This document shows, one piece after another, positions 13,294 through 15,220 of a DNA stretch of 62,143 nt. The position numbers and the translations under genes are program-made. The number at the start of each line of letters is the position of its first letter. Position 1 is the first letter of the stretch. The DNA comes from Alphaproteobacteria bacterium (GTDB taxonomy: Bacteria; Pseudomonadota; Alphaproteobacteria; Bin65), in contig JAJFFJ010000033.1 in assembly GCA_021776685.1 (NCBI GenBank), positions 1 to 62,143 on the forward strand, in the 5' to 3' direction. The notes beneath the pieces are model-generated. The model saw only the letters and a list, made by a program, of their open reading frames with translations. It ran no database searches and was not told the origin of the DNA.

Positions 13294-13857
13294 TTAACGG
13301 TTCTGGCCGGGGACCCAGAGGACGTCGGTGGCGCCATTGTCGTTCAGCTTGCGGGCCAGCACGAACAGGTGGTCCGACAGGCGGTTGATATACTGGATCG
13401 CCACCGGATTGATGTCCTCGGTTTCGGCTGTTGCGGTCATCTCCCGCTCGGCCCGGCGCGCCACGGTGCGCGCCAGATGCAGCCATGCGGCTGCGGCACT
13501 GCCACCGGGCAGGATGAAGGATGTCAGCGGCGGGATTTCCGCATTCATCGCGTCGATCTCATTCTCCAGCCGCGTTACCTGCTCAGGGCTCATGCGCAGC
13601 GGCGGATATTTCGGATCTTCCTGCTCCGGCGTGCAGAGGTCCGCGCCCAGGTCGAACAGATCATTCTGGATGCGGGCGATCATCTCATCGGCATCACCGT
13701 CCGTGTGCTGGCGCGAAAGGCCCAGAATACCGTTGCATTCGTCGGTGGTACCATAGGCGGCGACCCGGGGGTCGTGCTTCGCCACCCGTTCGCCGTCGCC
13801 AAGGGACGTCTGCCCCTTGTCACCGCCGCGCGTATAGATCTTGTCGAGTTTGACCAT
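13294..13857 (-). CDS. pduO: PduO-type cob(I)alamin adenosyltransferase
   Basis: A 187-residue ATP:cob(I)alamin adenosyltransferase. Diagnostic features are the N-terminal ATP-binding segment YTRGGDKGQTSL, AAYGTTDECNGILG, and the C-terminal helix ARTVARRAEREM with QYINRLSDHLFVLAR. It makes adenosylcobalamin, the cofactor of methylmalonyl-CoA and ethylmalonyl-CoA mutases. It lies directly downstream of the twin-TM gene (42-bp gap), an arrangement common in alphaproteobacteria, where etfB normally follows; here etfB is displaced by about 7.3 kb. Confidence 0.95.
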   Translation of the reverse strand: MVKLDKIYTRGGDKGQTSLGDGERVAKHDPRVAAYGTTDECNGILGLSRQHTDGDADEMIARIQNDLFDLGADLCTPEQEDPKYPPLRMSPEQVTRLENEIDAMNAEIPPLTSFILPGGSAAAAWLHLARTVARRAEREMTATAETEDINPVAIQYINRLSDHLFVLARKLNDNGATDVLWVPGQNR

Positions 13858-13899: not shown

Positions 13900-14094
13900 T
13901 CAGGTAGTCAGGGCAAAATAGGCGAGCAGGAAGGCGACCGCGAGCACCTGGAAGAAGACGCGCGAACGCATCAGCTTGTTGCCCCACTTGTCGTTGAACT
14001 CGCCACCGCGCGCCATACCGATAATGCCGGCGAACAAGGAAGCGACCACCAGCACAATGCAGATGATCGCCAGGATAAGAATAAACGTAGCCAT
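13900..14094 (-). CDS. Twin-transmembrane HIG1-domain protein
   Basis: A 64-residue membrane protein with two hydrophobic helices (about residues 3-27 and 46-63) joined by a short polar loop, GGEFNDKWGNKLMRSRVFFQ. This is the HIG1-type pattern, related to mitochondrial respiratory supercomplex factors (Rcf1/Hig1). In alphaproteobacteria this small gene typically precedes the PduO-type adenosyltransferase, as here. Its bacterial function is not established. Confidence 0.9.
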   Translation of the reverse strand: MATFILILAIICIVLVVASLFAGIIGMARGGEFNDKWGNKLMRSRVFFQVLAVAFLLAYFALTT

Positions 14095-14181: not shown

Positions 14182-14469
14182 TTACGCGTTGGCGGCAGCG
14201 ACGATGCCCCGGTAGGGACCAACCGCATAGACCTCGGCGGTCAGTAGCCCGGCCTTGACCAGCGGCAGCTCGCCGAGACGGGAATTCACCTCGTCTTCGC
14301 TGGCCGCTTCGATGACGAGCACCGCGCCCATGCCGTCGTTGCGGCTGTAAATCTCCCGAATGAAGTCGGCGGCGAACATCTGAAGCGCCATCTTGGATTC
14401 TGCTTCCATGTGCGGCGCAAATTCCTCGGCCGGCTTGTCTGCGCGTGTGGCGACCACAATAACTTTCAT
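14182..14469 (-). CDS. YCII-domain (muconolactone isomerase-like) protein
   Basis: A 95-residue single-domain protein with the ferredoxin-like fold of YCII/muconolactone isomerase relatives: MKVIVVATRADKPAEEFAPHMEAE with a conserved His, GAVLVIEAASEDEVNSRLGELPLVKAG, and AEVYAVGPY. The His/Asp pair is typical, but no reaction can be assigned. A barstar identity was considered because the next gene upstream encodes a barnase-like RNase; the sequence does not fit that family. Confidence 0.8.
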   Translation of the reverse strand: MKVIVVATRADKPAEEFAPHMEAESKMALQMFAADFIREIYSRNDGMGAVLVIEAASEDEVNSRLGELPLVKAGLLTAEVYAVGPYRGIVAAANA

Positions 14470-14567
14470 CTGATTTCTCCTCCCCAGAGTTCATTTTCAG
14501 CGCAGTCACTAGCACAAGGCTGCCGTCGACTGCCATGTCGTCTGTGCAAGGCGGGGGTCTTCCCTAT

Positions 14568-15071
14568 TCAGCGCGACGGCACCCGGCGGAAGCTGCGGTA
14601 ATGATCCATGGTCACCCAGATGCGCCAGCGTCCTTTGGTGCTGCGCGCGAATACCAGTCTGCGCGCGCCGCGGCGGCCGCCGCGCCAGCGCCCGTCATAG
14701 TCCAGATCCGCCTCCACATAGCGGTAATCCCGCGGCAGCCGGCGCTCGCGGTTGCTGAATCGGTTACCGCCAATCGCGTGGCCCCGCGCAACCCGCCACA
14801 GGCTGCTGCCGCGCCGCCAGCCGCGTCGCCGCGCCTGGCCTTTTGTCAGATAGCACCGGGGCAGCCTGCCGGTGCTATGAACTGTCCAGATCACGCCCAC
14901 CGCCGCCCGGGTGTAGCGCAGGCCCATCCGCTCAACGAAACGCCGCAGCTGCGCCCGCGCCGCCTCCGGCATGGTGACCCTGGCGCCACAGACAGGCGTC
15001 TGCGCAGCAACCGGCGACACCTCAAGGGCAAGGCCGGAAACGGCGAACAGGATGGCGGCTATTCGGATCAA
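14568..15071 (-). CDS. Secreted barnase-type ribonuclease
   Basis: A 167-residue protein with a signal peptide (residues 1-24, cleavage after VAA-Q) and a C-terminal barnase/guanyl-preferring RNase domain (about 68-163). All key barnase positions are recognisable: Lys27 corresponds to K77 (YLTKGQA), Glu73 to E120 (VEADLDY), Arg83 and Arg87 to R130 and R138, and His102 to H157 (TMDHYRSF); the SIGGDxFSNRE element appears as AIGGNRFSNRE. It should cleave RNA outside the cytoplasm. Cys28 and Cys73 could form a disulphide. The start is TTG 15071, supported by AAGGAG eight bases upstream. The mature protein is extremely Arg-rich. No barstar-like inhibitor gene is adjacent. Confidence 0.9.
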   Translation of the reverse strand: MIRIAAILFAVSGLALEVSPVAAQTPVCGARVTMPEAARAQLRRFVERMGLRYTRAAVGVIWTVHSTGRLPRCYLTKGQARRRGWRRGSSLWRVARGHAIGGNRFSNRERRLPRDYRYVEADLDYDGRWRGGRRGARRLVFARSTKGRWRIWVTMDHYRSFRRVPSR

Positions 15072-15220
15072 GGGCGGACTCCTTCCTGGTGTGGCGGGCC
15101 CAATGTCGCCGGATCTCGTTACTCGACCTCGTTACGCGACCTCGTGACTGGACCTCGCGGCAGGTTCGGCCCATTTTGGCAGAGACCACGCGCAAGTGAA
15201 GTCCTCAGGAGTGCACAAGC

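What the first reader, a model, noticed from the sequence alone, without database searches (positions are those of the whole stretch)
14568..15071. Secreted barnase-type RNase without a visible barstar
All catalytic barnase positions are conserved (K77, E120, R130, R138, H157) in a protein with a Sec signal peptide and extra cysteines. Barnase-like enzymes usually need a cytosolic barstar; no barstar-like gene is adjacent. The protein may be a scavenging RNase or a secreted toxin whose folding depends on a periplasmic disulphide, which would make cytosolic inhibition unnecessary.
Basis: partly seen in the sequence, partly recalled or inferred. Interest (0 to 1): 0.6.

Follow-up and report, generated by a model that had tools for sequence, protein, structure and literature searches.

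The report
Secreted barnase that lost its barstar
A bacterium carries an exported RNA-cutting enzyme of the barnase family whose usual protective partner gene, found next door in nearly all its relatives, is missing, so it may be a natural case of a potentially self-killing enzyme kept safe without its inhibitor.

Summary
The gene lies on the minus strand (15071 to 14568, TTG start). It encodes a 167-aa barnase-family RNase: PF00545, 44 bits; model Z 15.4 to barnase. It has a signal-peptide-like start and two cysteines, C28 and C73. Catalytic positions are conserved, but the R83 equivalent is R134, not R130. No barstar was found in the 98.85%-complete genome with Pfam or a lineage profile.

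The new point is that this is a loss. In the class sample 17 of 21 RNase genomes have barstar, always directly downstream, as do 76 of the 80 best named loci and same-family G008 and G010. G074 reads RNase-barstar-(two genes)-YCII-HIG1-CobO; the window reads RNase-YCII-HIG1-CobO, with 98 nt after the RNase.

Yet two of three genome-wide losses fall in this cysteine clade. The enzyme is also uniquely Arg-rich (rank 1 of 91). How the cell stays safe is unproven.

The parts
14568..15071 (-). Barnase-family RNase gene, 167 aa, TTG start
   Evidence: PF00545 44.1 bits; PDB phmmer to binase/barnase; model pLDDT 92, Z 15.4 to barnase
15000..15071 (-). Predicted Sec signal peptide, residues 1-24
   Evidence: Hydrophobic core mean KD 2.47 over 12 residues; cleavage site read by eye
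15079..15087 (-). Shine-Dalgarno-like AGGAAGGAG, 7 nt before the TTG start
   Evidence: Sequence
14988..14990 (-). Codon of Cys28, predicted partner of Cys73
   Evidence: Cys positions; N-terminal Cys and the Cys four before the K27 equivalent occur together in 7 of 7 rows of this class
14853..14855 (-). Codon of Cys73, predicted partner of Cys28
   Evidence: As for Cys28
14470..14567 (.). 98-nt gap where relatives carry barstar; no barstar remnant
   Evidence: Compare G074 and G008; no barstar profile match in any frame
14182..14469 (-). YCII/MIase-like 95-aa protein, an old neighbour and not a barstar
   Evidence: Pfam MIase 22.1 and YCII 17.9 bits, both below cut-off; present beside barstar in G074
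13900..14094 (-). HIG1-domain small membrane protein, conserved neighbour
   Evidence: PF04588 35.7 bits; synteny
13294..13857 (-). Cobalamin adenosyltransferase (CobO/PduO type), conserved neighbour
   Evidence: PF01923 221 bits; synteny

Best explanation
Shown by sequence comparison: this is the RNase half of an inherited barnase-barstar pair that sits in an RNase-barstar-(YCII)-HIG1-CobO neighbourhood in relatives. In this lineage barstar is gone, while the RNase keeps every conserved catalytic and guanine-loop position, a signal-peptide-like start and a cysteine pair. Inferred: the enzyme is exported unfolded by Sec, folds outside the cytoplasm with C28-C73 pinning its N-terminal arm to the barnase core, and cleaves RNA after G in the periplasm or outside the cell, most likely to use external RNA. 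The cell survives without barstar because little folded enzyme ever exists in the cytosol (fast export, redox-dependent folding and perhaps low expression acting together).
For: Family and active site. Loss of barstar: PF01337 absent from own genome, lineage profile absent; 17 of 21 RNase genomes of the class have barstar directly downstream; 76 of 80 best named loci likewise; same-family G008 and G010 likewise; G074 shows the order with barstar and YCII together. Tree: window inside a 99/88-supported group with G008 and G074, both with barstar. Conservation without decay: 0 of 24 conserved columns changed. Cys pair occurs as a unit, 7 of 7.
Against: The mechanism of safety is not shown: 4 of 7 complete enzymes with the same Cys pair, and 43 of 45 with the commonest other pair, keep barstar. 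For barnase itself, a signal sequence alone was not relied on in E. coli (PMC8403359, passages). The genome is a 158-contig assembly, 98.85% complete, so a barstar in a missing piece is not excluded. No expression or activity data. The 4-residue insertion beside R134 lies in the weakest part of the model (block pLDDT 60).
Confidence: 0.55

Rival explanations
1. One reading: the C28-C73 disulphide alone keeps the enzyme inactive in the reducing cytosol, and this is why barstar could be dropped.
For: Genome-wide barstar-less enzymes: 3 of 7 rows in the C28/C73 class against 1 of 84 other rows (Fisher p 0.001, not corrected for relatedness; two loss events against one). The two cysteines occur together.
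Against: 4 of 7 complete rows with the same pair keep barstar, as do the truncated clade members G008 and G074. Enzymes with other Cys pairs almost all keep it.
Confidence: 0.2
2. An inhibitor still exists: a barstar in the unassembled 1% of the genome or diverged beyond the profiles, or an unrelated protein such as the YCII-like neighbour.
For: The YCII-like gene directly follows the RNase where barstar is found in relatives. Two relatives without adjacent barstar do have one elsewhere in the genome. The assembly has 158 contigs.
Against: Barstar is adjacent in 17 of 17 paired class genomes. The lineage profile finds true partners at E 8e-22 or better but nothing credible here. YCII stands beside barstar in G074 and occurs without a detectable RNase in 6 of 7 genomes.
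Confidence: 0.2
3. The enzyme has become weak or inactive, so that no inhibitor is needed; barstar loss and Arg build-up are signs of relaxed selection.
For: A 4-residue insertion directly before the R83 equivalent, low model confidence there, and an extreme Arg excess.
Against: No change at any of 24 strongly conserved columns; open frame, good start context, GC3 0.80; confident barnase fold.
Confidence: 0.15
4. It is a secreted cationic RNase used against other cells, whose charge helps it bind and enter them.
For: Net +22 over the 98-residue core with 27 Arg, rank 1 of 91; 21.6% Arg against 2 to 8% in eight neighbouring proteins. That cationic charge favours RNase cytotoxicity is recalled, not from a call.
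Against: No delivery domain, no immunity gene, no toxin cassette nearby. The barstar-less G126 and G230 enzymes are not cationic (net 0 and -2), so charge is not a general companion of barstar loss.
Confidence: 0.1

Closest known systems
Barnase (B. amyloliquefaciens) and binase (B. pumilus), guanyl-preferring RNases of the N1/T1 superfamily
   Same: Same domain family, fold (Z 15.4), catalytic residues and guanine loop; exported
   Different: Extra N-terminal arm and helix with C28 and C73 (barnase lacks disulphide bonds, PMC8625414 passage); 4-residue insertion before R134; far more Arg; no barstar in the genome
Balifase-YrdF operon (B. licheniformis RNase with its barstar)
   Same: RNase gene next to its inhibitor gene, the arrangement of the window's relatives (PMC5021464, abstract and passages)
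   Different: The window has lost the inhibitor gene
Polymorphic-toxin Tox-Barnase with Imm-Barstar (PMC3482391, passages)
   Same: Same catalytic domain type
   Different: Here a small stand-alone secreted enzyme without trafficking domains and without immunity gene
RNase I of E. coli and fungal RNase T1 (recalled, no call)
   Same: Exported, disulphide-bonded RNases without a dedicated inhibitor: a model for how the cell may stay safe
   Different: RNase I has an unrelated fold; RNase T1 is only a distant N1/T1 relative

Membership tests
Barnase-type ribonuclease (PF00545) | Profile match over the curated cut-off | tested here: met
   44.1 bits, cut-off 24
Barnase-type ribonuclease (PF00545) | Catalytic residues K27, E73, R83, R87, H102 (barnase numbers, recalled) | tested here: met
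   K77, E120, R134, R138, H157
Barnase-type ribonuclease (PF00545) | Barnase fold | tested here: met
   Model pLDDT 92; Z 15.4, rmsd 1.5 over 107 residues to barnase
Barnase-type ribonuclease (PF00545) | Export signal | tested here: inconclusive
   Hydrophobic N terminus, KD 2.47; no predictor available
Barnase-type ribonuclease (PF00545) | Guanyl-specific RNase activity | not testable with these tools
   Needs an assay
Barnase-barstar pair | Barstar (PF01337) in the genome, usually adjacent | tested here: not met
   No PF01337 at E<=10; no credible lineage-profile hit. Genome 98.85% complete
Polymorphic toxin with Tox-Barnase | Long protein with trafficking or repeat domains before the toxin domain, immunity gene after it | tested here: not met
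   167 aa with a single PF00545 match and no barstar

The most novel reading that the evidence does not exclude
A naturally barstar-free barnase. In the clade whose N-terminal arm is tied to the catalytic domain by C28-C73, folding became dependent on oxidation outside the cytoplasm. That let at least two lineages (the window's, and the G126/G230 genus) delete barstar while keeping a catalytically intact secreted RNase; in the window's lineage the enzyme then became extremely Arg-rich. It would be a natural experiment on what the textbook inhibitor is for.
Probability: 0.35. Interest if true: 0.55.

Novelty: new variant of a known kind. Interest (0 to 1): 0.4.

Why it matters
Barnase-barstar is a textbook pair in which the cell is thought to need the inhibitor. 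Separate barstar losses with an intact enzyme, set against close relatives that keep it, make it directly testable whether export plus a disulphide can replace an inhibitor. If they can, such an enzyme could also be produced in ordinary hosts without co-expressed barstar.

Tried and rejected
YCII-like gene as a replaced or diverged barstar: rejected, because G074 has both and 6 of 7 genomes with YCII have no detectable RNase.

Barstar elsewhere in the genome: the only candidate, on contig C136 at E 0.085, lies in an ORF resembling an HU-type DNA-binding protein. Hits of like strength (E 0.09 to 0.6) occur in five other genomes of that call.

Extra cysteines as a sufficient cause of barstar loss: rejected. 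High charge as a common mark of barstar-less enzymes: rejected, as G126 and G230 are near neutral.

Little gained: the order search returned the same 11 genomes as the family search; the single-protein scan of genome contigs found nothing, the alignment scan worked; NCBIfam gave no family for the RNase; the plasmid collection gave two weak matches, both Proteus mirabilis. The Cys-Cys distance could not be measured, as the script box held no model file.

Cautions on counts. The barstar profile was iterated on the same loci, though every best hit was E 1e-11 or better. Pfam missed the G066 RNase at E 1e-3 (found), so the counts are lower bounds. L024 gave no RNase row; L020 (very divergent) was left out of the tree and charge counts; L047 and L165 are cut at the N terminus and were set aside in the Cys census. 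In the coarser census rows with other pairs, and the cut ones, fall under '-'. Several class genomes and named loci are the same genome (for example L064=G010, L065=G230, L066=G126), so searches are not independent samples.

Full report
What is there. The ORF is on the minus strand, 15071 to 14568, 167 aa, with a TTG start preceded 7 nt upstream by AGGAAGGAG. It matches PF00545 with 44.1 bits (cut-off 24) and binase/barnase in the PDB at E about 1e-13 to 1e-11. An AlphaFold2 model of residues 25-167, built on 51 related sequences, has mean pLDDT 92 and aligns to barnase at Z 15.4, rmsd 1.5 over 107 residues (Foldseek). The active site is complete: K77, E120, R134, R138, H157. None of 21 columns invariant in 17 relatives, and none of 24 columns at least 95% conserved in 50 relatives, is changed. 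The N terminus has a signal-peptide-like core (KD 2.47 over 12 residues) ending in VAAQ; no predictor was run.

No barstar. The held genome G000 (4.54 Mb, 158 contigs, 98.85% complete) gives no PF01337 match at E<=10. A profile of 17 alphaproteobacterial barstars gives one hit at E 0.085, in an ORF that by eye looks like an HU-type DNA-binding protein. The same search gives E 2e-33 to 8e-22 in four genomes that do have the partner (G066, G008, G010, G317). G000 has no second PF00545 gene.

The absence is a loss. In the class sample of 385 genomes the RNase is in 21 and barstar in 24. Seventeen have both, where about 1.3 would be expected by chance, and in all 17 barstar is directly downstream on the same strand. 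RNase without barstar: G000, G126 and G230 (one genus), and G208. G066, listed there without RNase, in fact has one beside its barstar. A scan of public genomes with the RNase alignment kept the 80 best of 589 loci; 76 of 80 have barstar within about 0.8 kb downstream. Of the other four, L065 and L066 are G230 and G126; the Riemerella (L109) and Oscillospiraceae (L108) genomes have a barstar elsewhere.

Neighbourhood. In G008 (same family) the order is RNase-barstar-HIG1-CobO; in G010 (same family) RNase-barstar lies at another site. In G074 (another family) one 3.7-kb contig reads RNase-barstar-(two other genes)-YCII-HIG1-CobO. The window reads RNase-YCII-HIG1-CobO with 98 nt between RNase and YCII, and there is no barstar remnant in any frame. 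G017 shows LysE-OsmC-YCII-HIG1 without the RNase, the same flank as the window. So YCII is an old neighbour, and the simplest history is that barstar was deleted from between it and the RNase. The YCII-like gene occurs without a detectable RNase in 6 of 7 genomes, which argues against its being a replacement inhibitor. The seven other family genomes of one genus (G001-G007) have HIG1-CobO and neither RNase nor barstar.

Tree. In a 91-row RNase tree the window falls in a 9-row clade supported 99/99, nearest to G008, G074 and G010, all with barstar. The six rows without adjacent barstar need five changes. All seven complete rows of that clade carry the C28/C73 pair; the two cut rows cannot be judged.

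Cysteines. Cysteines fall mainly into three classes whose members occur together: one after the second helix with one just after the E73 equivalent (45 rows), N-terminal with C-terminal (10 rows), and N-terminal with the position four before the K27 equivalent (7 rows, the window's class). This supports a disulphide C28-C73. But adjacent barstar is kept in 43 of 45, 10 of 10 and 4 of 7 of these. As a permissive condition it remains possible: genome-wide barstar-less enzymes are 3 of 7 in the C28/C73 class against 1 of 84 other rows (Fisher p 0.001, uncorrected for relatedness; two loss events against one).

Charge. The window's core has net +22 and 27 Arg in 98 residues, rank 1 of 91 (mean 3.2, SD 5.3, next +14). 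The whole protein is 21.6% Arg, while eight neighbouring proteins have 2 to 8%. The mature protein has a computed pI of about 12. The other barstar-less enzymes are not like this, so the charge is peculiar to this lineage. Why is unknown.

Mechanism. Most likely it is an exported RNase that folds after crossing the membrane, so that little active enzyme meets cytosolic RNA, and its role is probably use of external RNA. These two steps are inference. For barnase itself, a 2021 study says that cloning needs barstar and used barstar together with a PhoA signal sequence (PMC8403359, passages). So the window's enzyme should need something that barnase lacks; C28-C73 is the obvious candidate, low activity or an unseen inhibitor the main alternatives.

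Known or new. The family is well known, and pairs with adjacent inhibitor are described (balifase-YrdF, PMC5021464, abstract and passages; polymorphic toxins and simple pairs, PMC3482391, passages). Paper searches with phrases for missing or lost barstar listed no paper whose title or abstract start describes such a loss. The library holds only open-licence papers, so this is weak evidence. I file it as a new variant of a known kind: a barnase from a pair lineage without its barstar.

Noticed in passing
window 15115-15157: A 13-nt tandem repeat, 3.3 copies, 86% matches, lies between the divergent RNase and OsmC genes; it may be a regulator site.
   Followed up: partly
G208, locus L063 4609-5154: A third barstar-less RNase, of another Cys class, has VNADRK where others have NRE: the position of barnase R59, which by recall contacts barstar, is changed. 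This fits release from barstar binding.
   Followed up: partly
L108 and L109: An Oscillospiraceae MAG and Riemerella anatipestifer have no barstar beside the RNase but hold one elsewhere in the genome, so pairs can be split.
   Followed up: partly
G008 L003, G126 L061, G074 L165, L072, L080, L084, L088 and others: The RNase(-barstar) pair sits next to HIG1 and CobO genes in several alphaproteobacterial families, an unexplained conserved neighbourhood.
   Followed up: partly
class sample: Six of 385 genomes (G032, G100, G130, G193, G348, G362) have barstar without a detected PF00545 RNase; the inhibitor may serve other partners there.
   Followed up: no
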